This document shows, piece by piece, positions 14,906 to 41,188 of a stretch of DNA of 64,000 nt. The notes below the pieces were generated by a model. That model was not told where the DNA came from and ran no database searches. It saw only the letters and a program-made list of their open reading frames with translations. The translations under genes were made by a program, and so were the position numbers. Each line of letters starts with the position of its first letter. Within the stretch, counting starts at the first letter, position 1. The stretch lies in assembly GCF_021155765.1 (NCBI RefSeq), contig NC_060106.1, forward strand, positions 8,625,501 to 8,689,500, in the 5' to 3' direction. The stretch comes from Diprion similis (Eukaryota > Arthropoda > Insecta > Hymenoptera > Diprionidae).

Positions 14906-14939
14906 TCAGTCGCTGAAGAACCTCAGCCAGAAAAAGATC
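14906..14939 (+). promoter_or_regulatory. Initiator plus DPE core promoter of OR-B
   Basis: TCAGTC (14906-14911, +1 A at 14908) matches the arthropod initiator TCAGTY, and AGATC at 14935-14939 sits exactly at +28 to +32 and fits the downstream promoter element RGWYV. There is no TATA box at -30. The predicted leader is 84 nt. The same arrangement recurs in most other genes of the array. Confidence 0.6.
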
Positions 14940-14991
14940 ATAGCCTTTCAGTCCGTCGGATTTTTAAATAGGGAAATAAGCGAAATAAGAA

Positions 14992-17900
14992 ATGTCGAAC
15001 AGCAGTAGCGTGGTAATAATGCGGGACAATAATAAGTTCAGCGATCAGTTCGTCACTGCGATTCGTGCTTTACGTTGCCTTATGATTTACGTGGGAATTT
15101 GGCCAGAAAAAAAATATGAGAAATTGTACAATTTATTGTGGTACTTCCATACGACAAGTTTATTATTCCTAATCTGCGGTTTAGTGTGTGGCCTCATCAA
15201 AATTAGAGATGATATGGACAAAGTTATTTCCAATTTAAGCGTTACAACTGGAATGATATATGTAATTGGAAAGTGGTTTGCATTTTCTTGGCACAAAGAA
15301 CTGATAAAGAAACTGACGAATTCGATGGATGAAGATTGGATCAGCTTGACGAATAAGAGTTTGATTCATGGGAGCGTACCAGATTCGAAACAAATAATGC
15401 TAAAACGCTACGAAGTCTTGAATATTTACGTTTACACCATCTTCTTTGTGATATTAATTGCTGATATGAATTTCGTCGTCGATTATGTTGCTGCCACAAA
15501 TGATTACGGCAATCATACAGATTTGGATAACCTCTTGCCAGTATCTTACAGCTGGTATCCTCTCGATTATAACCAAGGTTATATCATTCAGGTAATTGCG
15601 AAATGAATATTGTAAATAATCAACTGAGATGAGATTAAATTGAATACGTATGATCATAAAAATCTGGGTCTTGGAAAAACATCTCAAACTTTTGCATTCA
15701 CTGCGGTCACTGCAAGAAGTCAGTTAACCATTTACTCAATCGACAACCAAATTATGATTTGATAAACCACATCTTGATATAAGGAACAGACCTCCAAACT
15801 ACATCGAGTAAGAGAAAATGAAGACGCTAACTGTTAATTTTCATACTGTATTCAAGAGAAAATCCATTCGCATGATTATGTTATTTTTAATCGAACTTTG
15901 GATGATTTAAGTTCTTGGCTGTTGCACAAGTAAGCAGTCTGCTATCCGGATTGGTAGCAAACACTGTGGTCGACGGTTTTTTCTTCATTGCGGTCTTACA
16001 TACCACAGGTCAACTTGAAATTCTCGGGTAGGCACAGATGCGCAACAATGTAGTAGGCGTTTACGGATTAGAAAATACTTTACTCTATTAATAATTCACT
16101 ATGTTTCAGAAATTTCATTCACAAAACGGAATATAATTTATTGGACTCCGAATGCGTTAAGAAAAATGTCAGAGAAATGGCGAAGCGTCACCAGCTGTTA
16201 TTGAGGTGGGTTTTTGCTTTTGTCAATTGATAAACAAAATTCATCAGCAAGGCACGTTGGAAAAACTCTTCTTTAATTCCAGCGTGGCAGCTGACATACA
16301 AGAATGTTACGGTATGATTACGTTTCTGCACGTGACCGTCTCTGTAATCTGTCTGTGTTTTTCTCAGTACACATTTCTTCTGGTAAGTAAGGAACTTTTA
16401 TCCCACGGATACTTTGTAGTAACCAAAGTAAGGAGGCGATCCTGGGCCAAAATTCTGATTCTGATATTATTCGGAAATATCATAGGGTCTACAAAAATCT
16501 CAATATTTCCCAAATTTGAAACCCATAAGCTTAACCGTTTACGAAAAACACGCGGATTCAGTTCTCAATTTATTTTTATCTTCGATTTTTGAAAAAAGTA
16601 TGACTGAAAGTATATATTTTTCCTGAATAAAAAATCTTCATTGTCCCCTCTTTAAAATTCGATAATAGGTTCTTATAGATTCAAGTGGGAACAGATATAT
16701 TACTGTTTAAAAGTCATAGTAGTTTAATGTGCGAATTTTCAAAAACCTGATGTATTATGCATCAAGCAAAAATGGCTGAACGTATGGAACAACACGTCAA
16801 AAGTTTTATATGTCGAGTCAAGAAAACACCCGTAGAAATTATGAGATCTGCCCTAGTGGCTCCGATTTTGGGGATACCATAATATCTTCGTGCATCTTCC
16901 GATACATTAAAACAGCAGTCAAGTTGACAGTTTGAGACCACATCGTCGGCTTACAATTGGCGGAATAGGGTTTATGCATTAACTTGCGCTGCAATAAGTA
17001 GTCTCGGATTTGTACTTGGTCTGAAATCAACATTGGAATAGAAAAAAGTTTGGCTTAGGCTTGTTCGCAGTTTGACCAATTCAAAATTGACGTTTCAGTA
17101 CAGATAGTTTCTCTTCTTCACATTTGTCGTTGTGCATGAATGGCAACAAGTTTGTGAATTTACATTTTTGCAATACAACTCAAGCTCCCTGTAAATGGTA
17201 GCCCATCGAAAGCCAATCGATCGACAATTCCTTACACATCGTTGTAAAATTTTTATTTGCAGACTAGGTTTCCAATTTATGCGAATGTTTATGTATTTTT
17301 AGAAAGGAAGTGTTAAATGTAACATCAAAAATATTTTATGAAAGACGACACTGTTTTAGCAATGATTTTAACGTCATTTGGTGTTGATGAAATCACAATT
17401 TACACTGATAGTGCTGAATTTTATACTAATTGTAAACGATGTGGACTCTGATCGATGTTGCAAATATTTTAAGAATGTACAGCAACGCATGTACATTTCA
17501 AAACTGTAATTCTGTCTGTTGAAGGAATTACAAAAAACGGAAGGAGGTCGAATGCTTGCGCTGAAGTACGGAATCACCAGTATTGCAGGGCTGGAGAATA
17601 TTTTCATCTATTGTTTTGTTGGCGATACTTTGACTAGTGAAGTGAGTATAATAAACTTTGAGGAATCAAAGACTTGATCGAAATCATCGTTCATTTAATA
17701 CTGCGCCAAAAAGAAAAGTTTTCCAACCGAAGATTCAGTAAAAACATGGCTGCGTTAAAAAATTTTGATACTTATGTTTAATGAGTAGAACTATATCCTA
17801 CGGAAATATCATCACTTTCACATGTTCGATTCCGACAAAAACTATGCAAAAGTATACAAGCCTACGGAATTGGTACAAAATTACGTACCTCCTAAGTCAT

Positions 17901-18294
17901 TCCGCGTTTTTAATTGGTGTATGCTTATCATTTTCTAGGGTCTTGCTATCGGAATGAGTATCTACAAATCAGAATGGTACAACGCTGGATCATCTACAAA
18001 TCTCTCGCTGTCAATAATGACGGCTAAAGCATGGAAACCGATAGTTCTCAGCGCCGCCAAAATCTTTCCCCTTACAATGCAAAGTTTTACAGTGGTGAGT
18101 ATGAATATGATTCTCAAATTTTCCGCGATCGAGTTCGTATCAATGTGTGATATGTGCGGAGAGACCAAAGTGATCGATTTTGTTTTTTCCTTACCAATAA
18201 ATGATGTGGTGAAATTTATCGTTACCTACAGATAATTAAAGCAATCGTATCATATCTTTCTGCACTACGAGCATTGGGCGTAGCTGACGTCTAA
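14992..18294 (+). CDS. Odorant receptor OR-B (7tm_6 family), complete, 7 exons
   Basis: Odorant receptor of 415 residues, expected to act with Orco as a ligand-gated cation channel. Coding exons: 14992-15591, 15912-16027, 16110-16205, 16283-16382, 17525-17641, 17939-18094, 18232-18294. All introns are GT-AG and phases equal those of the other array members. Exon 1 has GIWPEKKYEKLYNLLWYF and SYSWYPLDYN just before CAG|GTAATT. Exon 2 encodes VVDGFFFIAVLHTTGQLEIL. Exon 4 holds ADIQECYGMITF. Exon 5 gives ENIFIYCFVGDTL. The C-terminus is SYLSALRALGVADV. The ATG was chosen by alignment with OR-A and OR-C. Intron 4 is the longest (about 1.1 kb). Closest relatives in the window are OR-C and the truncated copy at 22.9 kb. 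Intact, so probably functional. Ligand unknown. Confidence 0.92.
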
Positions 18295-18557
18295 GGATAT
18301 TCGAGGCAACTCGTGAATAGATGACCAAAGTAACGCGATGAGAACATACATTTGTTAGGTAAGTCGTGAAATGCGATACTGAAAATATGCAGTGCACTGT
18401 GATTGTGAATCGCAAAAATGTTGTGTAACGCAGGTGCGGCTTAAGAGCACTTTTACATTCTAGTACTTAATAATGCACTTTTGTAACTTGTGATGACAAA
18501 AAATTGTAAACCGTACTTTTGTTGTATCAAGTATAATGTATTATACTTTTACACATG

Positions 18558-18563
18558 AATAAA
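18558..18563 (+). terminator. Candidate proximal polyadenylation signal of OR-B
   Basis: AATAAA 264 bp after the stop, in ACATGAATAAATG. A second one at 19382-19387 lies in the block conserved after OR-A and OR-C, so either could be used. Confidence 0.35.
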
Positions 18564-19381
18564 TGTATGATGGCTTCCAAGGTTCGCGCAAGGTTTTTTT
18601 TCTGTGAAGATAAATTAACTTTTGATACTCAATTTCATGGGTGAAATCAGACACACATCCAAATTTTTTACAGAAAGATGGTTGACTCTACAGAAATCAG
18701 TTCTACGGGACAAATATTCCACAGAATATGTTCTACAAACTCGTTGCTACAGTAATATTTTCATACAGAATATATTTCTCTCTTCCAACTCATTACCCGT
18801 TCGATACAACATACACTCAACATCTTTGAAAAAACACAAACAATTTCAATTAAATTAGGTTGAACTGAATTAAATTTAATCAAAATATACGATGATTAAG
18901 TCTTTGGTTTTATGATTCGATGATTGCTCTGACTGTGTGTTGGATCCAACACAATTTGGAGAAAAACATTGTAAAGAAAATATTCTTTGGATAAATGTTC
19001 TGCAAAAAAATATTTGCATGGAAACGAGTCTGTCTCAGAACTGATTTCTATAAAATTGAACCGCATTCGTCGTCACCAATAGAGACAGTAATTCATATCA
19101 CACATTTTTCCCGTTTAAAAATTTTATCATGTTGATTCTTATTTAACATTTATCATCCGCTCTAGCACAGATGATTGAAAATGTCTGATACGACACCCGT
19201 CGTCAATAGAACACATTCGTGAGCTGTCGTCGATCACAAGCCTTGAGATGCTTGTATTTAAAAATTTTTCGAATTATTAGTGTAAGCGCCCACATATAGT
19301 ATCTAGAAATGCTTACTGTTAGTGTTAGTATTCAAGTATTAGAATTTATTGTACTATATAATTGTACACACTCAATTAGAG

Positions 19382-19387
19382 AATAAA
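19382..19387 (+). terminator. Candidate distal polyadenylation signal of OR-B
   Basis: AATAAA about 1.09 kb after the OR-B stop. It is embedded in sequence paralogous to that around 12937 (OR-A) and 29140 (OR-C), with a shared downstream ACTTCGTTGTAAGTCAAT-like word. Confidence 0.35.
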
Positions 19388-19969
19388 CATTTGCTCAAAG
19401 ATGTATAAGCATTCGTCCAAATTCAAAGTTATTACTTCGTTGTAAGTCAATTTTTTTATTAGCTGATGTTTTGATTATTCAAATGCTGGATATGCAGGAA
19501 AAGTAGTAAATCGTGTCTTCCAATGGGTTGTTAAGGTCACGAGAAGCTATGTACAATGAACCTTAATTTTTTCCACAGGCACGTGATGTCACTGTCGATT
19601 TTGAATGACGGGATGAACAGTAATATCTGATATTAGTCCGTGTCTAAAAAAAATCGAGCTTAATTCTGGAGTTGCTTCAACAATTAAACCTATATTCTCA
19701 TATATATTTATTTTAGGAGGAAATTGTCAGTAAAAAGAGTTGTACCAACAAGGAAGATCAGTTTGGTATCCCTCTCTGATTTCGTTGGAACTCATGTGTG
19801 TTATAGAATATTGAAAACTAAGAGACACGTATTTTTTTTATCTGCGGAAAAACGATTTAAAAGGGTGAAAACGAACCCTAAAGACGGGCACCCAACGAGG
19901 TGATTCCTTGAATGAATTTGGCAAAATTATTTATTTAACAGCGCACTATAACAGGATACCCGTCAAAGT

Positions 19970-20231
19970 TATCTGGTGTGTACTTTTACCAACTCGATCC
20001 CGACAATAATTAAGCATAAGTATACAAACTCATAGAATTGGTACAAAGATTACATTTCTCCTAAGTCATTACGCTCTTCCAATTGATGTGGGTTTATCTT
20101 CTTCAAGGATTTGGCTATCGGGACGGCTGTCTACAATTCTGAATGGTGCAACTTTATGTCATCTCTAAATCGCTCACTGTCGATAATAACGGCCAATGCA
20201 TGGTAATTGTTCACAGTCAAAATCTTCGTCA
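19970..20231 (+). pseudogene. OR relic: intron 5 and exon 6 only
   Basis: Positions 19970-20107 align with the end of intron 5 of OR-B (shared words such as GAATTGGTACAAA and CTCCTAAGTCATT), followed by a decayed exon 6 at 20108-20231. The exon reads DLAIGTAVYNSEW and then SLSIITANAW before an in-frame TAA at the place where intact genes continue with KPIVLSAAKIF; part of that segment is deleted. No exons 1-5 or 7 are found nearby. Sequence at 19500-19740 matches intergenic DNA at 24040-24210, so this is a remnant of a further gene duplication in the OR-A/B/C set. Confidence 0.75.
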
Positions 20232-20739
20232 GGAGTAAATAAGTAAGTTTATTGTTTTATTCAGACTGACAGTCCGTAGAAATGAGTGTCGAATTGACAT
20301 GGATATAGAAAAATCTATTCTACACTGGAGGAGTTTTTTACTCTACGGCTGCACTTAATCTTGATTTATTGTTTTTCATTTTCTTGTAAGATATAAATTC
20401 GTCTGCTTTTGTATTCGCAACGTTACAAATATTCGAGCGATCTGTCTCAAGATCGGTAGGTTGGGAAATCTATCTATAAGTTGTAAAGTCAGACGTATGA
20501 ACTCGTGTAGAAATTTAACAATGTTTAATCGCGGTTCAAGGTAGAAAAAGCACGATTATGAGGTCATCTTGAGTAAATGTTAATTTCACCTTAGAAAATT
20601 TTCTTTTCATATCCTAGACAGCACAAGACTTGAAGTTAGCAAAAAGATGCTCAAAGAATGCACGTCTAAAATAGTAATAGCGTTTTTGCGGAACACGGAA
20701 CCCGTTTAACACTCAGTGTCCGACATTCGTTGACTTTCT

Positions 20740-21280
20740 TTGGTGTTAATCTCCCAATTCATTTTCTGTCATAGAGCTAGCCCCACTCACTCTCCCTCTT
20801 TGAAGCCGCGTTGCAGTCTTCAGCAGAAGCATAAACTCCGTTATCGTTTACTCGGAGAGGGCGCTCGCACTTCCGGGATGGAGTATATAATAGAGCGCTC
20901 ATTTCAATTCAGGTCAGTTGTTAATCCGCTTTCAGCGGACTCGCTACGGATATACGTTCAGCTATCTATCGCTTGTTACAATATCTCGTAGAGAATTACA
21001 TTAGCAATCTCTTATCGACACACTATCTTGTTCCATTCTCTCAAGACGGGCGGCTAAACGAGCCACAACTAATCATTAGAAACTAAAGAGTCTAAAATCA
21101 CTGTAGGATGAAGAGTCTAAATCTACTAGAAGCTGACCAGTCTACACTTACTCAAAACAGAACATTGGGTTTCACCACGCATTGATAAACTATCACTAAT
21201 CGAATACCATCGCTTTGTGTATCTTTCAGGCTAAACCGTCAACTTCGCAGACTCTCAATTGATTCTTTGCTTGCTATTTA
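20740..21280 (+). other. Possible solo LTR fragment with TATA-initiator promoter
   Basis: A GC-richer stretch whose style resembles an LTR promoter: TATATAA at 20884-20890 and TCAGTT at 20914-20919 (+1 A at 20916, TATA at -32), followed by a 5'-leader-like region without long open frames. No gag or pol sequence lies nearby, and I could not find convincing TG...CA ends or target duplications. The fold-back element begins just downstream. It could instead be the promoter of an unrelated transcript. Confidence 0.3.
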
Positions 21281-21283
21281 TAA

Positions 21284-22280: not shown

Positions 22281-22283
22281 TAA

Positions 22284-22910
22284 TTAGTTTCTCCTTGTAC
22301 TACGGGCTACTCTTCCGAGTTTCTAGAAGCTTCGTAACTATTGATCTAATCAACAATGATCACCCACTTTGCCACCTCGCAGATAGACTATCCTTTTAAG
22401 AACTATTTGCTTTTTCTGGATTCTACGTTGTGCTCGATAAACCTTCTTCTTAACAGTTTCTGCATCGAGTCCTGACTTGAATCACCGAATCAGATATTCT
22501 TACGCATTTTAAACAATGCATTTGCCATTTTTTGACACCAAAAAATATCTTAACGTTCAAAAGACATGAACGTTCCAAAAAAATATTCTGATATTTGTGT
22601 GGATGTTATTTCCGGAAAAATTTTTGTTACATGAATTTTCGTTTAGTCGCTATTTCAGTATTTTCGTGTAACTTTTTGTACGCCGTGATGTTAGAATTAG
22701 ATAATTCTCACGGAATTTTAAGTCTGAGAATAAATCCAGGTTTGCTTTTAATTTTTTTTCCTTTCTGTTTGACAGTTTTTGATGATTTTATCAGGTACGC
22801 CCTCTTACCTGGCGAGTTAGTAGGGGTAGCGAGGGTGTTTTCATTGACATTCCCTCCGAAGATGAATTGTCGTTTGATGGTTAGGTCAAATGCATTATTC
22901 ACTGTACGGA
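22284..22910. other. Intergenic sequence, no gene seen
   Basis: AT-rich DNA between the fold-back element and the truncated receptor copy. The open frames here lack any receptor-like or other recognisable motif. The missing 5' part of the following pseudogene was not found here. Confidence 0.4.
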
Positions 22911-23716
22911 CATCACGGGCTTTATCAAAGTTAGCCACGATATGGATAAAGGCATTTCTAATTTGATCGTTACAAGTGGGCTAATACATATATGTCATTG
23001 AAAAGTGGTCTAAATTTTCTTGGCACAAATTAATATTAAGGAAAACGAATAATCCTAAAACACTACCAAGCCTTGAATATTTACGTTTAGACCATATTGT
23101 TTGTGTTAAATATTGCCAATGTGAATTTTTTTGTCAATTTTGTTGCAGTCACAAATCAACACAGCAATCATACAGATTTGGATAACCTCCTAGCAATGTC
23201 TTCCAGCTGGTATCCTCCTGATTATAACCAAGGTTACATCAATCAGGTATTTGTGAAATAAACATTGTAGATAATCAACTGAGATGAAGTCAAATCAATT
23301 ACGTACGGTCATGAAAACCCAGGCTTCGGAAAAATAACTCCAAGTTTTTCCTTAACTATGTTCACTATGAGAGGTTTATTACCGTTTAATCAATCAGCGG
23401 ACTTTCACCGTTAATTATTACGCAGAGAAGGACAGTTTGAGAAACAATATCGTGATATAAGAAACAGACTTCGAAAATATATCGAGTCAAAGAAAATGAA
23501 GACGTGAACTGTTAATCTTCATACTGTATTGAAGAGAAAATCCATTCGCATGATGATGTTATTGTTGATTGATCGTTTCTGGAATTTTGGATGATCTTAG
23601 TTCTTGGCTACCGTTCAAGTAAGCAATATAGTATCCGGATTTGTAGCAAATACTGTGGTTGACGGTTTTATCTTCATTATGGTTCTACACACCGCTAATC
23701 ATCTCGAAATTGTGGG
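22911..23716 (+). pseudogene. Truncated odorant receptor pseudogene (parts of exons 1-2)
   Basis: Exon 1 is present from about the 75th codon only (22911-23246). It resembles OR-B and OR-C (VSHDMDKGISNL, NHTDLDNLL, SSSWYPPDYNQGY) but carries frameshifts, an insertion near 22990 and a deletion of roughly 70 nt near 23050. It keeps the CAG|GTATTT donor. Exon 2 (23601-23716) is fully open (FLATVQVSNIVSGFVANTVV ...) and exactly 116 nt, but its donor is AT instead of GT. Exons 3-7 are absent before the OR-C promoter. Closest to OR-B. Confidence 0.85.
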
Positions 23717-24403: not shown

Positions 24404-24430
24404 CGATTAGTTGAACAAAGAGTACAATTC
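24404..24430 (+). promoter_or_regulatory. Upstream promoter element of OR-C
   Basis: CGATTAGTTGAACAAAG followed by AGTACAATTC, 228 bp before the predicted start site. The ATTAGTTGAACA half is conserved with OR-B and the second half is weaker than in OR-B, D and G. Confidence 0.45.
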
Positions 24431-24629
24431 AGGCATAAAACTTCACCCTTCTTTTAAACACAATTTCACCACAAAACCACCACCATTGCATCAATCCAGG
24501 TAAAAAATTTATGAAATGCAACCCTAACCCTTCCATCTTTGGAGGGGCTGCGACTCGCCGCTTGCTGACCACGACTGGACTCACTCATACCCATGTAACC
24601 TGTATTTCACACGCTCTGACTTACGTTGG

Positions 24630-24663
24630 CCAGTCGCAGACGAAACTCCGGGAGAGAAGGATC
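24630..24663 (+). promoter_or_regulatory. Initiator plus DPE core promoter of OR-C
   Basis: CCAGTC (24630-24635, +1 A at 24632) and GGATC at 24659-24663, exactly +28 to +32 and a match to RGWYV. No TATA box. Predicted leader of 83 nt before the ATG at 24715. Confidence 0.55.
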
Positions 24664-24714
24664 ACTGCCTTTCGGTCAATCGGGTTTTCAAGAGTGATAT
24701 TAGAGAAATTCGCA

Positions 24715-27700
24715 ATGGTGGACGAGAATCAGGTGATAACATTACAGAGGAGTGATGAGTTCTGCGGTCAGTTTATCACTGCGTTTCGTACGTTACGTTA
24801 CCTCATGATTTATATGGGAATTTGGCCAGAAAGGAAATATGAGAAATTGTACAATTTATTCTGGTATTTTCATTTGGCAAGTTTATCATTCCTAATCTAC
24901 GGTTTAGTATGTGGCCTCGCCGACGTTAGTCACGACATGGATAAATCCATTTCTAACTTGGGTATGACAAGCGCAGTAATATGTGTTATTTGCAAGTGGT
25001 TGACGTTTTCTTGGAACAGAGTACTCATCAGAAAGCTGATGCATTTTATGAATGAAGATTGGATTAACTTGGAAAACAATACTTTGATTTATAAAAGCGT
25101 ACGAAATCCAAGAAGATTAATGATGAAATACTACCGAGCCTTGAATATTTTCATCTGCACCATATTATTTATGGCTCTTATCGCTGTTATGAATTTGGTG
25201 GCCGATTCTGTTGTAGCCATGAATCACCATGGCAATGTTACAGATCAGAGTTACACTTTGCTTGTACCCTCTAGCTGGTATCGTCACAATCACAACCGAA
25301 GTTACACCAATCAGGTAATTAACAAACGAATACTTTCAGTAGAAATTGTAATAAAATCAAATCTGATACCTCCTCGAAAGAACCTTGTGACGATAAGGAC
25401 CAGGATTTTGAATACGCAAAACATTTGATTTTGTTTCACTAGAAGCACCACGTAGTGAAAACTATGTCAGAATGATTATTTGTCAAATGATTCTTTCACG
25501 ATCATTTATTTGGAAGGTGGTGTTTTTAAAAATTTGATGAATGATTCACCGAAGTTTCAAAATTCTCAAAAGATTAAATATTGACACGGAACCACTGAGA
25601 TCTGCCATGGTAAATTTAACGATGCGATCAAGACAGAGTATAGTTCAAACATGTAAATAACTAATATTTGAACGTATCGAAAAACTTTGACTTGAACAAA
25701 AATTATCGTTAAGCATGCACACTTTGGCTCATGCAAAGAAGTATGTTCAATGAAAATGTTAGCATTGTGTTCGTGTACCCGATTAATCATTGAATTAATC
25801 CAAATATTATTGACAATGGGAAAGCAACCGGTTTATTAGAATTTTACTATAATTGGAAGTTAAGATAATTACCGGCGGCTGATAATTCCGAGCTGTAACT
25901 ACAATCAGTGTAGAAACGATATATAGTAAAAAAATCTTATTCTGATACTATTTATTACGCACAAAGGAGCGCTTGACGAGCAATATCGCGGTATGGGAAA
26001 CAAACCCTGAAATTTTTCGAGTAAAATAAGGACACCAAGCTGATTTGTCGACGAGTTAGAAGAAAATTCATATCATTCATGCGATACTTGCCATTAAAAT
26101 TTGAACAATTATGTGACTGTTAATCGAACTTTCAATAATTCAAGATTCTGATTACCGCGCAAATGACGAGTATGGTATCAGGATTGCTCGGCAACACTTT
26201 GGTTGACGGTTTCTTCTTCATTACGGTCCTGCACACTACCGGTCAATTCGAGATCTTGAGGTACGTATAACTGCTCAAGTACGTGGTTGGCGTTTACAGA
26301 TCGGCAAGTGTTTTAACTCACTAACATTTCGACATTTTCTCAGTGATTTCATTGGAAGAACGAAATATGATTCATTGGATCCCGAACATGACAAAACAAA
26401 AGTCAAGGAGATGATAAGGCGTCACCAGATGTTATTGAAGTAATTTGTTGACTCTATAGTTTCAAAAAAGAATATGATTTACGAGGTTCGATGAAAACAA
26501 CTTTCTTTCAATTCCAGTGTGACAGCCGACATACAAGAGTGTTACGGTATGATTACCTTCCAGCAGCTGGCTATCTCTACACTCTATCTGTGTTTCTTCG
26601 AGTACGCATTTATTATGGTACGTATCAAACTTTTTGAATGTCAACGTGTCGCATTACCAAAACTATGAGGGCAGTGCCAACAATTATAAGCAACCGATGA
26701 AGTACCCTATAGTTCAATTCTGTTAGGATTTCTGATTAAGATCACGTGTACGAAGATCACGAGACTCAGTTGAGTCTCGAGCCAAGTTTCTTTCCCTCAA
26801 AAGAGAGTCGAGTTTGATCTACGGTATTGAAAATTTGTTTTCTTATAACTGTGGAAATGAAAATAAGGAAGTATACCGGTCTAGCTTCAATTATGTGCTA
26901 GTGCGGTACATGACATTATTTCGTAGATACCTAATTCAATCATATAAGTATCCTTGAAATTGTTTACTTCCAGGCTTAACCACTTTTGCACTTTCTACTG
27001 TAGAGAAAAAATTTAAAATTTACAGTGACTTTTGCATAAGGACTGATATAAATGTCCCACAAATATACGGAAAATTAGATAATACGCAATCCCATAACCA
27101 TCCCATTCTGAAAATCTGAGCTATGACAAAAGACATCTTAATTTTCCGACGGTGTGGACAAAAGTTATTTCTTCTATGGAAGCCCCAAAAAGCTATTTTT
27201 CCGTGACGGAAATGTTTTTTGGCTGTTACTGGATATCCATAGAAAAATGAAGCACCGATTACAAAAAATTCGTACTTTTTCCAAACAAATATCACCATGC
27301 GTTAGACACTTTTTCTAACAGCAATAAAGGCGAAAAATGAATGAAATAGTTGTGAGGCGATTTGGGGATACTTGTATCATAGTACGCCTGATAAAACATC
27401 AGCATAGCGATCAAATGAAAATTTTGGCGCCTGCATAACTTACTCAAAATTGGCGGAATTTCCTACGTGCGCTCTAGACTGTCATCTCAGAATCCATACT
27501 TTCATTTTCAAGGATCTTGTTTTGGAGCAGATACGAAAACAGAAAAGAGTTTGTTCTGGGCTCAGTCGCAATTGATCAAATTTAAACTTCGCGTCTCCGT
27601 AAAGCTAGTTTCACTTCCGTTCTTTTATAATCATTATTTATTTCGAGGTTTGAAACGTATTATATGTGCTTCGGTGACGATGTAAGTTCCTTCAAGACTG

Positions 27701-30594: not shown

Positions 30595-30628
30595 TCAGTC
30601 GTGAACAAAACTCCGCAGCAATTGCTTC
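30595..30628 (+). promoter_or_regulatory. Initiator and weak DPE of OR-D
   Basis: TCAGTC (30595-30600, +1 A at 30597) is a perfect initiator. GCTTC at 30624-30628 occupies +28 to +32 and matches RGWYV at four of five positions. Predicted leader 85 nt. No TATA box. Confidence 0.5.
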
Positions 30629-30681
30629 AATTTCAGTCTTTTACCAACGAAATATTCAATTGTAACACAGTGTAGAACGCA

Positions 30682-33559
30682 ATGTCGGAAGATGCTAAGG
30701 TCAGGATTATACAACGCAACCATATTTTGAGCAATCAATTCACCGGAGCGATTCGTAGTCTGCGTTACGTTATGATTTATTTAGGTATTTGGCTAGGAGA
30801 AAGATATCAGAATTGGTATCTTTTCGTGTGGTTTTTTCATTCGGCAAGTTTAATATATTTAACCGCCGGTTCAGTAGGCGGTCTCATCGTTCTTAGACAT
30901 GACGTGAACAAAATCATTAACAACTTGGGTATGTCAAGTCCAACGATACTCATTGTCTGTAAATGGCTTACATTCGCTTGGCGTAAAAAACTGTGCAAGA
31001 GGCTTATGCATTACATGAACGCCGATTGGGTCAACTTGGAAAAAGATACTCTTATCAATAAAAGTGTGCCGGATTCCAAACGAATAATCGTAAACTACTA
31101 CCGAACATCGAATTTTTTTGTCTGCACTTTCATAATCTTGGCTTCTGTTGCCACCGTGAATTTCCTTGGTCAATCTCTTTTTTCTCTCAACCAACGCGAT
31201 AATAATCTGGATAAGGATAAAATCTTCCCGATGCCTTACAGTTGGTATCCTGTGAATTACAACGGATCAAGTTATATTATTCAGGTAAATATGGAATGTG
31301 AATTTCCATCAAACACTAGGGTGAAAGTAGATTTGACAGTAATACGAAATAACTTTGCGTGGTTCATTGAATTTTGAATAATTCAAGTTCCTAGTGTTCG
31401 CTCAAATAAGTAGTATGCTATCAACGTTTCTGGCGACAACCGCAATCGACGGCTTCCTCGTTGCTGCGATTCTACACCTCAGTAGTCAACTCAAGATTCT
31501 GAGGTACGAAGAGCATGTGTGAAGAATGAACATAGATAAAATCTGTCGATTTGAAAGAATTCGATCCCACAAATCGTCTCGTTCTCTTCCAGACATTTCA
31601 TAGAAGGAATTACTTACGAACCGTGGCATCCTCAAAATTACAAGAAAAAAGTGAGAGAAATAGTGAAACGCCATCAAGTGCTGTTGAGGTAAGTCATATT
31701 GTATCGGCTACTGTTTTGAAAAAGTACTTTCTTCACTTACCTCTCAAACAATATCTCTTCAATTTTAGCGTAGCAGCCACGTTGCAAGAATGTTACAGCA
31801 TCATTGCCCTGCAACATGTAATGGCGTGTGTGCTTGCGCTCTGCTTTCTTGAGTGTTCATTTCTCATGGTATGTACGCAGTAGATTTTTTCAATTCTGAT
31901 AGCACTCTACAGAAGTGATATTTTTTGATGGTTTGAATCTTCATGGCATAATTTGATTGAAAATCATCAAATTGCAAATTAGATAGCAATTTTCATTTTT
32001 GATGCTGAATAATGGTGTCATTATTTCAAACTTTCGTTAGAAAAATTTTGGCTTATGGATCTTTTTAAACAACACGAATTTATGACGTTAGAATATTTCA
32101 ACAAATATCGTAAATATCTATGCACCTGTAAATAACAACCATGGCTACTCAATGGAATAATTTCAAACAAGTGGGAAAATACTCTGTCGTGAAACATTGT
32201 TGACAATGAAAATTTTATGTTATGCGAAAAAGCTTCAAGAGTTTCACTAACGGTTATTCAACGTCTGAATGTGGTTTAGGAATTACAAGAAAACGAAGCT
32301 AGCAGAACGAGTCTCTTAACCTTCGGACTTTTCGCTATAGGATCGCTGGAGACTGCCTTTATCTACTGTTTTGCCGGCGATTCGTTAACTAATGAAGTAA
32401 GAAAGATTAATTAAATCATCATGATTTATTGCAGTTTTATGATTTGCAAAAAAATTCCACTCCCGTTAGGTGCACGAATATCGCGGGAAAATCAAAAAAC
32501 TGAGAACGATTATAGAGCAAACTGAGGATTCATTGAAATCAGAGCCTCATCAAAATATGATACAATAGAATTTTGTTTACCCGAACGTCCGTCATCCGAA
32601 CCCCTTCGTTATCTAATCTACGCTTTGTTTCATTAGAACGTTCTATTACCCGAACAAAGATCTAAAATTTTGGAGAATGAGCCGCTGAAAGAAAAAAAAT
32701 GAATAATTATAAATCGTTGCATATCCATGAACATTTTTTCGTTGAAATCAACAACATTTTTATGAACTCTACACGCAAATGGAGTATAAACATAATTCGA
32801 CGTGTGAAAGCAACACAGTATGTGTGTAACATGAACTCAAAAATATATTCACTACCCCACTACGGTCCTAATGGTCGTTGTCGTGTAACATCATTTTATC
32901 TATCATATTATTGTTTCGCCATCCAATTTCTGACTAACCTAAATTAGACCCAGCCTCAATTGAGAGGTTACACCACCAAGTAATCTAGTAAAACCCCATT
33001 TTGAAAATTTTTACCAATGGTGGAATTTTTTCTCCATCAGGTATGGTCTAAAAAATGAAATTCTTCAACAAAAGGTACTAGCTATAGCATAGCATAAAGA
33101 AAAAAATGTTAAGTTTCGAAAATCAATAAAAAATTTAGGCGGTATCCGAACGTATCTTCGAACTGATAATGTATTCGTCTCAAATTAATGCACCTCATCA
33201 TTTTTAAGGGGATGGCTATCGGATTGGCTATCTACAGATGTGAATGGTACAGTTTCTCAAGATCGACTAATCTCTCATTATCGATAGTAATGATCAGAGC
33301 ACAGAAGCCGATAGAGATTAGCGCAGCCCAGATTTTCCCCCTCACGTTAGAAAATTTTACAGTAGTGAGTACTTTGATTTAAAAATTAGTTCGGCCTTTA
33401 TGTCTGTGTATACTCTGTATCAATGCCAATTAGATGTTCTGCCCTGTCTCCTAAACGGTAAATAACTCTATAACTGGTATTTGCATTCGTTTGCAGATAG
33501 TCAAAGCCGCTGCATCGTATCTCTCTACTTTACGAGCTTACAGCATGATGGAAGCCTGA
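30682..33559 (+). CDS. Odorant receptor OR-D (7tm_6 family), complete, 7 exons
   Basis: Odorant receptor of 416 residues. Coding exons: 30682-31284, 31388-31503, 31593-31688, 31769-31868, 32280-32396, 33209-33364, 33497-33559; GT-AG introns, all in phase. Exon 1 begins MSEDAKVR, has MIYLGIWLGERYQNWY (the usual GIWP is GIWL here), VPDSKRIIVNYYRTSNFFV and PYSWYPVNYN. Exon 2 holds TAIDGFLVAAILHLSSQLKI, exon 3 HFIEGITYEPWHPQNYKKK, exon 4 SVAATLQECYSIIALQH, exon 5 ETAFIYCFAGDSL. The C-terminus is SYLSTLRAYSMMEA. Its closest relative is OR-G, with the same SVAATLQ, ETAFIYCFAGDSL and SYLSTLRAYSM motifs; the two are counterparts of the three-gene block duplication. Intron 5 (about 0.8 kb) holds possible transposon-like words near 32580-32660. 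Ligand unknown. Confidence 0.92.
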
Positions 33560-34180
33560 AGAAAATTAAGTCAGTCAATCGGCGACGGGCAAAAAAAAAC
33601 TTTTGTGGGGACATTCATCGAACAGTTTTCAAAACACATTAAGTAGAATATGAAATCCGAAAAATTATGTTCATCTGTCGAGACTCCTTCGCATAGTAAT
33701 GATTTGAATCTCATGCTATTTGTGCGTGATGATATCTTTATGGAATCAAATCGGTTTTTTATTTGTCGACTTGAGCAAAAAATGCGTGATTAAGGTAAAG
33801 CCTACATTTTAACCGAAAATATACGAATATAAACGTAGTAGATAAAATTTTATCGATTTTGTAATTCCATTATTGTGTTACCTGAAATAGTTTCTGCAAA
33901 TAATATACCTATTAAACGTCAATTCAATTATATAATTTGCATTTATTCGACAATAATTGGACCTTACGAATATTCCAATCGTTGCTTATAATATAAAACT
34001 GAAACATTCGGCGGAACAGTTATCCATAACCTTATTCGAATTGCAAGTATAAGGTACACAATCCAATTTACTTCACGAAAACACGTAGAATGTTGGTCAG
34101 CCACCGATAATTTCACTCCAGTCTTCCGAAGTATCTACCCATCTACTAATTCATCGCCGGATTATTCGCTTGATTGATTG
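33560..34180. other. 3' flank of OR-D
   Basis: No gene. The variant polyadenylation signal ATTAAA at 33911-33916 is kept at the paralogous place after OR-G (43815-43820), in both followed by CG, and is the best candidate 3' end signal. Confidence 0.4.
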
Positions 34181-35420
34181 CATCAAATTAGCAACGAAAA
34201 GGTCATTCGCCGAAATGTAGTGTTTTGACTAGAGTTATGCGTACTCCGCACACCCTCGGAACATATTTTCCAAAATTGACCCGACTCTTCATGAATACGT
34301 ACTAGCTGCTGATCATGTGGTGTAAGTACCGTGACTTTTAGAGTGACGTACGGCGTTGTTGGAATGGGTGGAAGCATCTGCAGTCGTATAGTAGATCTAA
34401 TCAGATCCTTCGAAGTAGTTTTATTGCACATACAACGTTAACAAGGAGCTCGATCACCCACCTCGGAATCACCACAAATTGAAAAAGCCAAATAGCTAGC
34501 TACTGAATAGGCACTGGATTTGTAGCAACCTTCGGGATCCTGTAGCAGGTAACGACAGTCAATGCGGCATTAAATGGGACTGAACTTCAACACAAGCTCC
34601 ATGTACCATGATGGATGGTTTGCAAACGCTTTTCACAGTTGCAAATATCGCAAAATCACGCAGTAACTGGACATTGATTTAATCCCAAGGTGTTCATCAA
34701 CATTTTACGAATACATTTTGATATATGAATGCATTCTATAGCTTTCGTCATTGCTGGTATCAGGTTTCGCATCCAACGTAACGTTTACTGGCAACATTAA
34801 CTTGCACCCGCTAAAATATTCTTACCGTTTACAGATGCGCAGCAGTCTTTAGAGGCATCCTGAACCACTGGTGCCATTCACATCTCATCGAAACGGGATC
34901 CTGATACCCTGTGAACGCAGCTTAATCCACACACCGGGCCATCATGGCGGTTGTTGACACTCACGTGATGAATCCTGGCACGGATTTAGCTATCATAAAC
35001 TCAGGGTGATTGGTTACGGCACTGACTAACTCGAAGAACACTACTTGAACTAATTCGAAACCAACCACTCGCCAAACAACTCGTTGAATATTTCGGACAC
35101 ACCGGGCACGAGCTTTTCGCCATGACAACGATACCGCGTACAGCTTGCGATCAGCTGCTTTTTCAGGCAATGGGTGGCTGGATGGTATGCGGTGCTTCCA
35201 TCTCTGAAACAGTGGTTGAAATCTGCAGGACCGTCGAGGGTGCGCTATCCAGTATTATCCTGAGGATGGCGTCGGGGGTTGACGGAAGGTAAGGAACCCG
35301 CGAATCTCTTTATCCCAGTTGATGGTACGCCGTAGAAATCGATGCCTGCTATCGGCTGCTGAACGAAATATGCCGTCAGGGTTTGGAAAATTCTCGGTAG
35401 AGAGCATGGACGGATATTTT
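34180..35420 (-). other. Unrecognised GC-richer block, possibly decayed coding sequence
   Basis: A stretch of about 1.2 kb that is clearly GC-richer than its surroundings and has no counterpart in the second duplication block. On the minus strand several short open pieces follow one another in different frames, for example one at 34183-34431 with MLPPIPTTPYVTLKVTVL and one at 34961-35170 with KLYAVSLSWRKARARCV, separated by stops. This looks like a degenerate gene or transposon remnant, but I recognise no family and see no terminal repeats. Confidence 0.3.
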
Positions 35421-36219
35421 CATTTCTTACTTTTCGAGTGACAAGTAGGAAGATTCTAATCGCGGGACTTTTCGCTATTTATTACTACCAGACAAGATAT
35501 TTGACAATCATCATTTGTCTGGCATTTTTCTCTATAAATGTGAACTCTACAGCAGATTAGACTAATATTAGATTCGAATAAAAAAATTATCTGTTCCTCG
35601 CGTGTGTAAATTGATATGTATTTTCGTACTTCTGTGGAAAAACTTTTGACCATGGTCTTCAATGGAGGAACAATGCGCATGGTTTACGAGATTTGAATAA
35701 TACTCCAGGAAAAACTATCGAGATTGAAATAAAAATTCCACTTTATCAATTATGTCATTGCATTCGACACAACGTACGGCAATTTTTAGAATAATAATTT
35801 GTCATTTTGGAGTACATACGTCCACAATCTAATTTCATCGCTCCGAACTCATGTATAACTAATATCGTGGAAAGTGTTATATTCAATTAATAGAGATAGA
35901 ATGGAAAATATTCAGTTTCATTATTTTTGTTGTCATGGAAATTTAGGGTTTCAGTAATTCGTTCATTTAAACTCGTATTCAGAAGAGTCTTTTTCACAGG
36001 CAGGCGATCATCATGCGATAACGTATGACTGCGCATGTATCGATTCATCCAATCCTTTTGTGAGAAAGTTTCCTCAGGTAAAAAACACATAGGGCGACGA
36101 AATCAACCCTGAATCCAGACAGGGGGAGGGTATCCGCTGGATATTGCGACTCCGCCATATGCACAGTCCATTTTTTATTCAACGGTCTATCAAGTTTGGA
36201 ACTTTTCATCCTGCATTTG

Positions 36220-36246
36220 CAATTAGTTCTATCGAGTCCGCGCTTC
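36220..36246 (+). promoter_or_regulatory. Upstream promoter element of OR-E
   Basis: CAATTAGTTCTATC followed by GAGTCCGCGCTTC, 198 bp before the predicted start site. A diverged copy of the array-wide element. Confidence 0.4.
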
Positions 36247-36415
36247 CATTGTAAAAGTTTGTCGTGATACCTTCAAGTTGGGGGACAAGATATCCTGCAG
36301 GATTTAGAATGCATGAACTTTTTACACGGTAAAAGAAAACAAAATTTACTATCGACTACATCGATCTGCATGGACTATATCGATAGAATTTTTAATTCAC
36401 TTTGAGCTCGGCAGG

Positions 36416-36449
36416 TTAGTCGAGACTGAAGTTTCACAGTGAGAAGATC
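36416..36449 (+). promoter_or_regulatory. Initiator plus DPE core promoter of OR-E
   Basis: TTAGTC (36416-36421, +1 A at 36418) and AGATC at 36445-36449, again exactly +28 to +32. The promoter of this broken gene is better kept than its later exons. Confidence 0.5.
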
Positions 36450-36544
36450 ATCCTTCCCAGTCGCCGAAAGTTTGCCTATCCCGAGCTTGCGAAATAGAGC
36501 TCGAGTCTTTTATTAATCGCTTCGTGACTCTCTAGAAAAGAATA

Positions 36545-37640
36545 ATGCTGAAAAACACCAAAACCATAAAACTTATCGAGAATGATAAGATCCACGATGA
36601 GCCGAACTTTTCATTTTATACCTTGCGATTCTTTATAAAGTTTTTGGAGATGTGGCCACGAATTAACTCGAGTGGTTGGCTCGATAACATGGCATACTTA
36701 AAGTCGATTGATCTAATTTGTCGATTACTCTGTCCAGTGACTAGTCTTCACTTGCAGAGATCCGATATGGTCAAAATCGTTGATGACCTAGACTTAGTCA
36801 TACCGATGACCTATGTCTTTCTAAAATTTGTTTCGTTGATTAACCGTAAAAATAAGACGGGGAAGCTTGCTTGTACCATGGAAAAGGATTCGAATGACGT
36901 AGAAAAAATTTCATCCATAAATCAAAGTTTGTCGGATAGCAAAGATGTAAGGGAATCGCACTTTCATATTGCAAAAGTTTTCTTTTATGCCTGTTTGGCC
37001 ATTGAAGGAGCCTCTATCGGCAATTTTACCGGTAACGCGATTACAACTCAAGACTCTACTAGTAACGGAACAGGATGCAATCAACTCTTGTCTCTACCGA
37101 ATATCTGGAATTCTCTGGATAAGAACTCGAGCTCTAATATTCAGGTAGTTATTTTCCGAATACTTAATCTCCAAAGATAAGAAATCGTTTTTGTCTTTAA
37201 CGTAATTTATGTTATAATGAAATTCTTAACATATTTTCATGGTCTGGTATCGGACATTAATGCAATTTCACTATTTAAAAAATACACAGAATAATTGTTT
37301 CTTGCATAATTCAAGTTTTTAGCAGTGATAATGAGTCAATCGATAATTTCGACGATAGCAGTACTGTCGAACGGATCAATCGACAGGAACTTTATAATCG
37401 ACGTTTTGCACTTGTGAGGTCGACTTGAAATTTTGAGGTACTAATTTCAGTGAGTTTGAAAGACGTTAATGAAAGTTGTCAATCGTAATTCCATATTTTT
37501 TACAATTGTCTTTTGCTCCTCAGACGTTTTATCGAACACAACTCTTACGATCCTCCGAGTTATGGAAGAAGAATGTCGAATATATTTTCGGAGGAAAATG
37601 AAGGAACAAAATTTAAAAGTGCCAGTGACTCGGGGTTCAC
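36545..37640 (+). pseudogene. OR-E: odorant receptor pseudogene with intact first exon
   Basis: Exon 1 (36545-37144) is a fully open 200-codon exon, exactly the array length, ending NIQ then the donor GTAGTT. It is strongly diverged from its neighbours, with conserved landmarks such as SDMVKIVDDLDLVIPM and SLSDSKDVRE replacing the usual forms, and it has lost the SWYP motif (IWNSLDKN instead). Exon 2 (37316-37437) is 122 nt instead of 116 and has an in-frame TGA at 37415-37417. Exon 3 starts at 37524 (RFIEHNSYDPP) but diverges after about 15 codons and has no recognisable donor. Exons 4-7 are missing in the 440 bp before OR-F. The gene cannot give a full receptor. A short product limited to the N-terminal half is conceivable. 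Confidence 0.8.
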
Positions 37641-38042
37641 TAGTGTTGTAAGATTGAAAGCACGAATTTTGATTAACAAGTGCAGGTAATCATTCTTTCT
37701 ACGAATCGCAAACGTCGATAGAAACGTACAACTGTAATAAAATGGCAAGTAAATTATACTGCTATAAAATACAATTGGAACAATGAATTAAAAAAAGAAA
37801 TATTGCGCAGTTTACTTCGAGAATAACAATCTAATAATCGCTACTTATATGATTGGATTCTCAGTCATGTAAGATCCCACCCGTATTTTTACATTTAAAT
37901 TATGCGCGATTCGTCAGGGACCAGATACTTGGAGAAAATTAGTGTCCATTATTCACCTGTTATTTGTCATCGTTTATAGTCACGCAACCTCGTTTATCTA
38001 ATCAAATTTAATCGCATCGGTATACTTATGACTCGACTCATG

Positions 38043-38077
38043 TTAGTGAGCGTCACAAGCCGGAATTTTCGCGACAG
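38043..38077 (+). promoter_or_regulatory. Possible initiator and DPE of OR-F
   Basis: TTAGTG at 38043-38048 (+1 A at 38045) and CGACA at +28 to +32 (four of five positions fit RGWYV). The implied leader is only 35 nt, shorter than in the other genes, so this is tentative. Confidence 0.3.
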
Positions 38078-38079
38078 AG

Positions 38080-40135
38080 ATGTGGTCTCATACTGAAAAT
38101 GAAAGTACGAGCTGCAGTCCAAAATCTGGGACCAAAATACTCAAAGGAAAAGAAAATTTCCAATCGAATTTTCTAGCTCATTTTAGAGAGATAAAAAATC
38201 TCCGGCAGATACCCGAGATACCATGGACCAAAGAAACAAGTTTTAACACGGCAATGGGGGGCGTAAGGCATGGATTGAGTTTGATCGCATCTTGGCCACT
38301 GATGCTAGAAACTTGGAGAATAACGGTGATTTGGTTGTTTTACGCTGTGGGATTTTTGGTGTGCGTATGCGGTACTTTAGGCGGAGCGATTAATGCTCGG
38401 AAGGACTTCCAGCGTTTGGTCGCGGTGCTTGGTCAAGCCATCCCAGTCACGGTGATAGCCATCAAGTACGGGTTATTCAGGGCGCAAGTGAAGCCGCTGA
38501 ACCAGATCCTGAAAAGCATGGAATCGGACTGGGAAAGTGAGAACTTGAATTCACGAAGGGACGATCCGGGGGCGCTACGACGTCGTCAGATAATGACGAA
38601 TCATGCCCGAGTACCAAGGATTTTTTTCAACGTTTACACGACGGTCGTGATGGTTTGTTGGATATTGTTCACCATCGGACCAGTAACCAAGAGAATATCG
38701 TCACGTGATCAATCTCCACCGACTGCCAACAAACTTCCTCTCAATTCCTGGTACCTTTTTCCCTTCAGTCACAGCTCCATTTATCAGGTGTGTTTTTGAA
38801 TCGAGAATGACTTAACGTTTCTTTATCATGGTTTATTTTAATGCCAGATTATGTACGTGTTCGAGGTATTCTTCGGGACTGCAATGGTCATCGCACACAC
38901 TGGCATAGACAGTTTGCTAGTCACCGTAATTTTTCACCTTTGCGGACAGCTGGAGATACTGCGGTAAGTATGGAATTTAATAACATCATAGCTTCGGTGA
39001 GAATTCATCCGAGGAATTCTGCGATTCACTGTCACGAATCTCAGTTTATAGACTAGCAACGAGTTGATCAAATGCTTGCTATTCGATGGGAATTTTTTTG
39101 CGAAATAAACTTTGGGATTTTCAGTACAAAGTCGTCTTTATTTGATTATTCGTACAGACTAATGAGTTGCGCACAAATATCGAATTCTCTTGAAATATTA
39201 TGACGCAATGAGATCTACTCGTATTTAATCTTCACCTTTTTGTTTATCCTATTACAAGGAGCTGCATTGAGGAGTTTCGGACTGAGGAACGAAGCATTAA
39301 AAGCATGTGGGCCGACGTGAAGTTCATAGTCGAACGACACGAGGCGATAACAAAGTGAGTTACATTCGATAAAGCAGGTCAGAGGTAACGATTTACTATT
39401 TTTTACCTGAAACATTCTCTAGTTCAGCTCGTAGTCTGGAGAAATCCTTTAATGGAATTTTATTGAGCCAGCTACTCGCAGGCACACTACATATTTGCTT
39501 GGCAGGATTCAGTGTTCTACAGGTACGCTAAAATTTGAAATCGCCTACTTAAAAAGTTCAATCCTAATTCTACCCTCACTACAATCTGAAAACCATAATT
39601 TGTAGGCAATGGAATCGAACAACACTTCGGTTCTCGTGAAGTTCGGCCTTTTGCTTACAATGGTTCTGCAGCAACTATTCATTTACAGTTTGGCTGGAGA
39701 TTACTTAACGTCCCAGGTAAATAATTCTTCTGTGATGCCCAGGATCGAGCCAAAATTCAATTAATTCGAATGCAATTTCTGGCCCGAGTTGAAGAGTACT
39801 TTTTTAGAGATCATTTGTTTGATGTAGGGTATTCTGATACGAGTAGCTGCCTATAAAGCCACTTGGTACAAACTACCGCCATCGGTGAGTAGATCATTTT
39901 TATTGATCATGATCAGAGCAACGAAACCGATTACGCTTACTGCTGGAAAATTCTCTGTCATGTCATTACCCAATTTTACCTCGGTGAGTTTTTGTTCTAA
40001 ATATTTGGTGGAACAAAGTCTAGAATGGAAGGACTATTAACGACATTTTACATTTCATACAATTTCTAGCTAATCAAATCAGCGGTATCGTATCTCTCGG
40101 TTCTGAGGGCGATGAATACGGACAAGACTAACTAA
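38080..40135 (+). CDS. Odorant receptor OR-F (7tm_6 family, divergent), complete, 7 exons
   Basis: Odorant receptor of 450 residues, more distant from the others but with the same gene plan. Coding exons: 38080-38787, 38848-38963, 39259-39354, 39423-39522, 39606-39716, 39828-39983, 40070-40135; all GT-AG with matching phases. Exon 1 is 236 codons, about 35 longer, because of a polar N-terminal extension (ENESTSCSPKSG...) before the first hydrophobic region. Motifs: LIASWPLMLETW, FLVCVCGTLGGAI, SWYLFPFSHSS in exon 1; HTGIDSLLVTVIFHLCGQLE in exon 2; FIYSLAGDYLTSQ in exon 5 (two codons shorter than usual); FSVMSLPNFTS then SYLSVLRAMNTDKTN at the end. Intact. A decayed duplicate lies at 45.8-46.8 kb. 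The start codon is the first ATG of the exon; an inner one at residue 59 is less likely. Ligand unknown. Confidence 0.9.
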
Positions 40136-40517
40136 GTAGTTAGAACTGTTGAAGCAGGTTAAAATACTTGAATTGTAGTTGCATCGTGTGGATAATTTTG
40201 TGTTATAGATAAACATTAGGAAATTTACTAAAGGACTATAGTTTACTGTGTTTTTCTCACAAACAATGTTTCGCTCTCATTATTTTACTGATCACTTCAT
40301 TCACCCTTATTCAATTTTCTGAATACAAACTGCAAAGTACCGCATTCAAATAACAGTGGTATAAATATTTGGTGGTAACCAACAACATTTAAACTTTTTC
40401 CCTAATCCATAACCAATGATCGATAGAACAACCACTGCTTATTGACGTTGTTTAGACAGATTTATATTCAAGTGTAGCTGCAAAGACAGTGCACGTTTTA
40501 TAAATTTAGCACCATTC

Positions 40518-40523
40518 AATAAA
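40518..40523 (+). terminator. Candidate polyadenylation signal of OR-F
   Basis: AATAAA 383 bp after the stop, directly followed by a second overlapping cluster (CAAATAAAG). Confidence 0.35.
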
Positions 40524-40890
40524 ACAAATAAAGAAAGGCAAAAATACTTCGAAAACCCAACGCATTTTAATAGTTTTATATCACGAATGAGTTTATGAAA
40601 AAAAGGTAGTCAGAATTTGCTACGATTAGATTTTTCTGCAACAATTGAATTCGTATTTCAATATCTACTTTTTTGCAAGCACATTATCGTCTAGAAAAGT
40701 TAAAGTCAAGTACAAGTAAGTCAGCTCTATCCATTGTTACCAGGTTAGTCGAACGTGAAAACCACACTTTGCAACCTGAATCGAACGTATACAAGACGGA
40801 GTCTCCCCTCCATAAAAATATTCCCTCCACCGCAGTCCGCTTTTTATTCAAAGCTTTGCGTATAGTTTCCAACTTTTCAATACCCATCGG

Positions 40891-40917
40891 CAATTATTTG
40901 ATCCGAGTGTGCGATTC
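40891..40917 (+). promoter_or_regulatory. Upstream promoter element of OR-G
   Basis: CAATTATTTGATCC followed by GAGTGTGCGATTC, 215 bp before the predicted start site, the same distance as in OR-D. Confidence 0.55.
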
Positions 40918-41103
40918 CATCGTCCAACTTCTCCTTGATACTTTGAATTCTGTGTCCGCCAGACATATCGTCCAATATTTAAGATTCATGAACTTCGCTC
41001 ACAGCGCATGCATCTCTGCGTGGAATGTTCCTTGCCACTGCATGATTGCAGAGTGCTTTGTCTGTATCGACAGAATTTCTAATCCCGAGCCTGACTGCGT
41101 GGG

Positions 41104-41137
41104 TCAATCGTGAACGAATCTCCGCGGCGAGTAGATC
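41104..41137 (+). promoter_or_regulatory. Initiator plus DPE core promoter of OR-G
   Basis: TCAATC (41104-41109, +1 A at 41106; one change from TCAGTC) and AGATC at 41133-41137, exactly +28 to +32. Predicted leader 83 nt. No TATA box. Confidence 0.5.
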
Positions 41138-41188
41138 AGTATCTTCTTCGGCCGATGAAATTTTCTATAGTGAAAAGTGCAAGACACA

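What the first reader, a model, noticed from the sequence alone, without database searches (positions are those of the whole stretch)
14906..41137. Array-wide TATA-less core promoter with initiator and DPE at exactly +28
Taking the A of YCAGTC/TTAGTC as +1, positions +28 to +32 read AGATC (OR-B 14935), GGATC (OR-C 24659), AGATC (OR-E 36445), AGATC (OR-G 41133), GGATT (OR-E relic 45074) and GCTTC (OR-D 30624). The spacing is fixed even where flanking bases differ. Initiator TCAGTY and DPE RGWYV are established arthropod core-promoter motifs. That this OR set is DPE-driven is inference.
Basis: partly seen in the sequence, partly recalled or inferred. Interest (0 to 1): 0.7.

Follow-up and report, generated by a model that had tools for sequence, protein, structure and literature searches.

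The report
Inherited initiator, patchy DPE in receptor array
A row of duplicated insect smell-receptor genes shares a well-preserved initiator-like start signal inherited from a common ancestor, but the second promoter signal said to sit 28 bases downstream fits only some of the copies and is not a rule for the array.

Summary
The letters are as quoted, but the claim built on them is too wide. RGWYV at +28 fits 4 of 7 initiator-bearing leaders (B, C, E, G). OR-A and OR-D have all six exon modules without stops and a good initiator, so the count is 3 of 5 apparently intact genes and the DPE is not array-wide. OR-G reads TCAATC, outside the stated YCAGTC/TTAGTC. Only OR-B fits TCAKTY and RGWYV together.

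The fixed spacing follows from descent: the leaders are homologous and gap-free from about -10 to +37. Column shuffles give P = 0.006 for at least 4 of 7 at a preset +28, and 0.16 at any offset. Positions +28..+33 (RGATCA) are somewhat better kept than their surroundings (P 0.04 to 0.08), so an ancestral DPE lost in some copies remains possible.

In 200 kb of other OR loci there is no +28 peak. An unrelated six-gene OR array has invariant TTCAGTTC and a conserved downstream block, but no RGWYV at +28. Best reading: TATA-less arthropod TCAGT-type initiator promoters, inherited by duplication, with an optional, decaying DPE. No 5' ends were mapped.

The parts
8567..8572 (+). OR-A initiator CCAGTC, A+1 = 8569 (not in the finding)
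8596..8600 (+). OR-A +28..+32 GAAGC: 2 mismatches to RGWYV
14906..14911 (+). OR-B initiator TCAGTC, A+1 = 14908
14935..14939 (+). OR-B +28..+32 AGATC: fits RGWYV
24630..24635 (+). OR-C initiator CCAGTC, A+1 = 24632
24659..24663 (+). OR-C +28..+32 GGATC: fits RGWYV
30595..30600 (+). OR-D initiator TCAGTC, A+1 = 30597
30624..30628 (+). OR-D +28..+32 GCTTC: 1 mismatch to RGWYV
36416..36421 (+). OR-E (probable pseudogene) initiator TTAGTC, A+1 = 36418
36445..36449 (+). OR-E +28..+32 AGATC: fits RGWYV
41104..41109 (+). OR-G initiator TCAATC, A+1 = 41106
41133..41137 (+). OR-G +28..+32 AGATC: fits RGWYV
45045..45050 (+). OR-E relic initiator TTAGTC, A+1 = 45047
45074..45078 (+). OR-E relic +28..+32 GGATT: 1 mismatch to RGWYV

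Best explanation
Each OR copy of this tandem array was duplicated together with its core promoter: a TATA-less arthropod-type initiator (GGYYARTCR, A = +1) about 84 bases before the ATG, with conserved islands at about +9..+17 and +28..+33. Most likely RNA polymerase II starts at or near this A. The ancestral leader probably read RGATCA at +28, which fits the DPE consensus; it has been kept in B, C, G (and E) and lost in A and D. A strict DPE is then at most an optional aid to TFIID binding, not the driver of the array. Shown: letters, homology, gap-free register, conservation pattern, failure in A, D and the relic, and no +28 peak at the other OR loci scanned. Inferred: that the A is the start site, that TFIID contacts the downstream islands, and the ancestral state.
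For: Letters and counts. Homologous leaders. Invariant columns -4 G, -3 G, +1 A, +3 T, +4 C, +12 A, +13 A, +16 T, +33 A (also -10 T and -26 T); the best 5-column windows, overlaps aside, start at +1 (0.89), +12 (0.77) and +29 (0.72). +28..+33 identity against +6..+37: 0.688 vs 0.494 between clades (random-column P 0.041), 0.675 vs 0.545 over all pairs (P 0.079), 0.70 vs 0.488 for E and relic against the rest (P 0.046). Inr-to-ATG distance 83-86 in A, B, C, D, G. All six exon modules found without stops in A, B, C, D, G. An unrelated OR array has TTCAGTTC in 6 of 6 aligned leaders (7 sense against 0 antisense in 50 kb), 126-151 bases before the likely ATG, with identity 0.65-0.76 from +1 to +40 and 0.25-0.43 from +41 to +84.
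Against: No 5' end is mapped. Conservation is not confined to the core promoter: in the five intact genes -100..-91 is 0.71 and +51..+60 is 0.63; in the C12 array -70..-51 is 0.67-0.75. Fourfold-site identity averages 0.62 among A, B, C, D, G (21-49 sites per pair), so +28..+33 (0.65 in the same five) is hardly above near-neutral sites there. Two other OR pairs (C1, C10, read by eye) show no shared TCAGT upstream of the likely ATG, so this initiator is not universal in ORs here.
Confidence: 0.66

Rival explanations
1. A true Inr+DPE promoter class: the ancestral DPE at +28 is functional and selected in B, C and G, and A and D use weaker variants that TFIID still reads.
For: RGATCA consensus at +28..+33; E identical to B and G there although its exon-1 protein is 19-25% identical to the others; column-shuffle P 0.006 at a preset +28; island conservation P 0.041-0.079; YYAGTC+RGWYV peaks at +28 in the window (5 against a mean of 1.04).
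Against: A (2 mismatches) and D (1 mismatch) are apparently intact without it; no +28 peak over 200 kb of other OR loci; 0 of 6 in the C12 array; MTE and Bridge absent and +24 G only in G, E and the relic.
Confidence: 0.2
2. The start lies elsewhere and the YYARTC block is a conserved 5'-leader or transcription-factor site, not an initiator; for instance a TATA-driven start upstream.
For: TATAAAAT at 8438 (A) and 14822 (B); conserved columns further upstream, -100..-91.
Against: The TATA word is absent from C, D, E, G and the relic; the initiator columns are the best conserved of the leader block; an unrelated OR array has an invariant TTCAGTTC in its leader.
Confidence: 0.12
3. Everything beyond the initiator is residual similarity from recent duplication or gene conversion, with no function at +28.
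For: All leaders are homologous and gap-free; fourfold sites among A, B, C, D, G are about as similar (0.62) as +28..+33 (0.65); P for at least 4 at any offset is 0.16.
Against: Between the deep clades +28..+33 exceeds its surroundings (P 0.041-0.046).
Confidence: 0.4

Closest known systems
Arthropod TCAGT initiator (Inr, TCAKTY in Drosophila)
   Same: B and D fit exactly; A, C, G, E and the relic have one mismatch; C12 array 6 of 6 exact. The consensus TCAKTY is in PMC1538597 (passages); the name 'arthropod initiator' is recalled.
   Different: Start site not mapped here; G has A at +2 where the consensus has G or T.
Inr+DPE core promoter (RGWYV, 27 bases from the Inr A)
   Same: B, C, E, G fit at exactly +28; no TATA box at -30.
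   Different: A, D and the relic fail; no function shown; absent from the second OR array.
Tandem OR arrays of ants and bees with readthrough and bidirectional promoters (PMC12393541; abstract and passages)
   Same: Head-to-tail OR copies, each with its own leader.
   Different: No transcription data here; 'core promoter', 'motif', 'initiator' and 'TATA' do not occur in that paper's main text.

Membership tests
Initiator (Inr) promoter | TCAKTY around the start site | tested here: inconclusive
   2 of 7 exact, 5 of 7 with one mismatch; start site unmapped
DPE promoter | RGWYV at exactly +28..+32 | tested here: not met
   as an array-wide feature 4 of 7 leaders, 3 of 5 apparently intact genes; met for B, C, E, G singly
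DPE promoter | No TATA box at about -30 | tested here: met
   best TATAWAAR match has 2-4 mismatches, 7 of 7; A/T-rich tract noted
DPE promoter | Activity depends on the element and on its spacing from the Inr | not testable with these tools
   needs a reporter or in vitro transcription
DPE promoter | Capped 5' end at the Inr A | not testable with these tools
   no transcript data held
DPE as a general OR feature in this genome | +28 peak of Inr+RGWYV at other OR loci | tested here: not met
   (TCAKTY sense: 4 at +28, mean 5.61) and C12 array 0 of 6

The most novel reading that the evidence does not exclude
Each tandem OR array of this genome carries its own conserved downstream core-promoter signature (RGATCA at +28 in part of this array; a GGGAGCAAC-like block at +21..+29 in the C12 array) on a shared TCAGT initiator, so that arrays differ in how TFIID is engaged: an array-level core-promoter code for receptor expression.
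Probability: 0.12. Interest if true: 0.55.

Novelty: new member of a known kind. Interest (0 to 1): 0.22.

Why it matters
In ants, OR arrays are read through, have bidirectional promoters and appear to silence neighbours by interference, with evidence that bees do the same (PMC12393541, abstract), so where each copy starts matters for how one receptor is chosen. A start signal inherited with each duplicate gives a concrete place to test this in another insect. Showing that the DPE string is missing in two apparently intact copies keeps a motif match from being taken for a rule.

Tried and rejected
DPE as a general OR feature: offset scan +18..+40, both strands, 200 kb from seven other OR places of the genome. 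TCAKTY sense: 4 at +28, mean 5.61; TCAGTY sense: 2, mean 1.78; YYAGTC sense: 1, mean 1.96; loose YYANWYY sense: 38, mean 35.87. No +28 peak. The scan includes intergenic and satellite DNA, so it would miss a few true sites.

Leader homologues elsewhere: DNA searches with the OR-C and OR-G leaders matched only this array. They scored 2 candidates each and missed most of the paralogous leaders in the window itself, so they are insensitive. Protein searches with exon 1 of B and of E gave no match outside the array better than E = 0.48 and 0.61.

Helper motifs: MTE at +18 has 4 to 6 mismatches of 10 in 7 of 7; neither Bridge half fits in any of 7; G at +24 only in G, E and the relic.

Other OR groups: the C1 and C10 pairs, two C6 pairs and four leaders of the C12 3.7-Mb group showed no shared TCAGT leader that I could recognise. 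One C6 pair shares TCAGTT, which I read as coding. First exons there are not defined well enough to count as misses. The C14 pair was only glanced at. Loci L040-L043 were fetched but not analysed.

Coding explanation of the leader: OR-C's exon-1 frame is open far upstream, but the frames of A, B, D, E and G open within 15 bases of the ATG.

The organism was not identified.

Full report
What is there. The window is G000:C2:8625501-8689500, part of a 269-Mb genome with 103 segments matching the insect odorant-receptor family PF02949 at E <= 0.001 (120 candidates scored, a lower bound). It holds a plus-strand OR array: A (ATG 8655), B (14992), C (24715), D (30682), E (36545), F (38080) and G (41189), with relics at about 20.1 kb, 22.9-23.7 kb, 45.0 kb and 45.8-46.7 kb. 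Exon 1 of B finds nothing outside this array in its own genome better than E = 0.48.

The letters. Every pentamer and coordinate in the finding is correct. The list is incomplete and partly mis-scored. OR-A has the homologous initiator (CCAGTC, A+1 = 8569) and reads GAAGC at +28. Against RGWYV: B AGATC, C GGATC, E AGATC and G AGATC fit; A GAAGC (2 mismatches), D GCTTC (1) and the relic GGATT (1) do not. That is 4 of 7. OR-G's initiator is TCAATC. Full agreement with both TCAKTY and RGWYV occurs in B alone.

Which copies look intact. Modules of all six exons, without stops, are found for A, B, C, D and G; splice junctions were not verified. OR-E has an in-frame stop in its exon-2 module (37310-37441), and no exon 4-6 module was found between there and OR-F; I take it as a probable pseudogene. 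So 3 of 5 apparently intact genes carry the DPE string. A and D, which lack it, have initiators with 1 and 0 mismatches. A DPE is therefore not array-wide.

Why the spacing is not evidence. The seven leaders are homologous and need no gap from about -10 to +37, so any motif of one ancestor sits at the same distance in all. Pairwise identity over -9..+37 runs from 0.41 to 0.80. Column shuffles of +7..+37 that keep the sequences aligned give a mean of 0.19 matches, P = 0.006 for at least 4 at the preset +28, and P = 0.16 for at least 4 at some offset (20,000 shuffles). The preset P in effect asks whether one ancestral sequence held RGWYV at +28, and is not corrected for other core elements that could have been reported. 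Independent shuffles reached 4 in 0 of 20,000 but treat paralogues as independent. In the window as a whole, YYAGTC+RGWYV does peak at +28 (5 against a mean of 1.04), 3 of the 5 being leaders B, C and E; the looser TCAKTY count is 4 against 1.83 and is matched at +30.

Evidence for some constraint at +28. Positions +28..+33 have mean pairwise identity 0.675 (0.688 between clades), against 0.545 (0.494) over +6..+37; random-column P = 0.079 (0.041). Of 27 contiguous six-column windows 5 (3) do as well, the +28 window itself included; the others start between +8 and +12. E is identical to B and G over +28..+33 although its exon-1 protein is 19-25% identical to those of A, B, C, D and G. This fits an ancestral RGATCA kept in part of the copies. 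Against it, fourfold-degenerate sites among A, B, C, D and G average 0.62, close to the 0.65 of +28..+33 in the same five.

The rest of the core promoter. Invariant columns near +1 are -4 G, -3 G, +1 A, +3 T and +4 C; +12 A, +13 A, +16 T and +33 A are invariant too. There is no TATA box between -45 and -18, but an A/T-rich tract lies at -33..-22 in 7 of 7 (58-92% A+T). In the C12 array the same stretch is 42-58% A+T. MTE and Bridge do not fit in any of 7.

Other OR loci of the same genome. Over 200 kb from seven OR places fetched, Inr+RGWYV pairs show no peak at +28. In an unrelated array (C12, leaders at 9,036,372 to 9,057,279, minus strand) six aligned leaders share an invariant TTCAGTTC, which occurs 7 times on the sense and 0 times on the antisense strand of that 50 kb, 126-151 bases before the likely ATG. 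Identity is 0.65-0.76 from +1 to +40 and then falls, although -70..-51 is also high. RGWYV at +28 is found in 0 of 6, and at no offset from +20 to +40. So the TCAGT initiator recurs in two arrays, but the downstream sequence differs. It is not universal: the C1 and C10 pairs show no shared TCAGT.

Known background. In Drosophila promoters the consensus forms used are Inr TCAKTY and DPE RGWYV at a distance of 27 bases; 66.5% and 22.1% of promoters were scored as having them (PMC1538597, passages including a table). The fly DPE depends strictly on an Inr and on the spacing (PMC8384218, abstract and passages). In a study of Ftz target genes the Apis mellifera row of a conservation table is negative in all seven columns (PMC6472829, passages). 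Full-text searches for odorant receptor with DPE, initiator or core-promoter terms returned one paper, on mosquito doublesex (listing only), so I found no report of DPE use in OR arrays in that library. PMC10542623 (passages) describes sawfly OR clusters but nothing used here. The name 'arthropod initiator' is recalled, not from a call.

Verdict. A real, inherited initiator-type leader with a partial and optional DPE match; ordinary in kind. The DPE claim should be cut back to 4 of 7 leaders (3 of 5 apparently intact genes) with function untested.

Noticed in passing
G000:C12:9036372-9057279, minus strand (L014-L017): Six paralogous OR leaders share invariant TTCAGTTC 126-151 bases before the likely exon-1 ATG, with a conserved TCTYGGGAGCAAC-like block at about +17..+29 that is neither MTE nor DPE by consensus.
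   Followed up: partly
36545-37600: OR-E has an open, very divergent exon 1 (19-25% aa identity to A, B, C, D, G), a stop in its exon-2 module and no exon 4-6 module, yet a leader identical to B and G over +28..+33. Exon 1 ends in CAG|GTAGTT about 0.9 kb upstream of OR-F; use as an alternative first exon of OR-F is conceivable but untested.
   Followed up: partly
8569-8655, 14908-14992, 24632-24715, 30597-30682, 41106-41189: Initiator-to-ATG distance is 86, 84, 83, 85 and 83 bases in A, B, C, D and G (127 in E).
   Followed up: yes
-33..-22 of each leader, e.g. 14875-14886: An A/T-rich tract (58-92%) sits where TBP would bind, without a TATA consensus.
   Followed up: partly
8438 and 14822: TATAAAAT lies upstream in A (-131) and B (-86) only, far from -30.
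   Followed up: partly
20099-20200 and 22903-23714: Fragments of a further degraded A/B/C-type OR copy lie between B and C.
   Followed up: partly
9255-9262: OR-A's exon-1 end reads GGG|GTGATT where B, C, D and G read CAG|GTRA; effect on splicing untested.
   Followed up: no
G000:C6:3530530-3540000 (L027): A tandem satellite of about 312-base units lies next to the C6 OR cluster.
   Followed up: no
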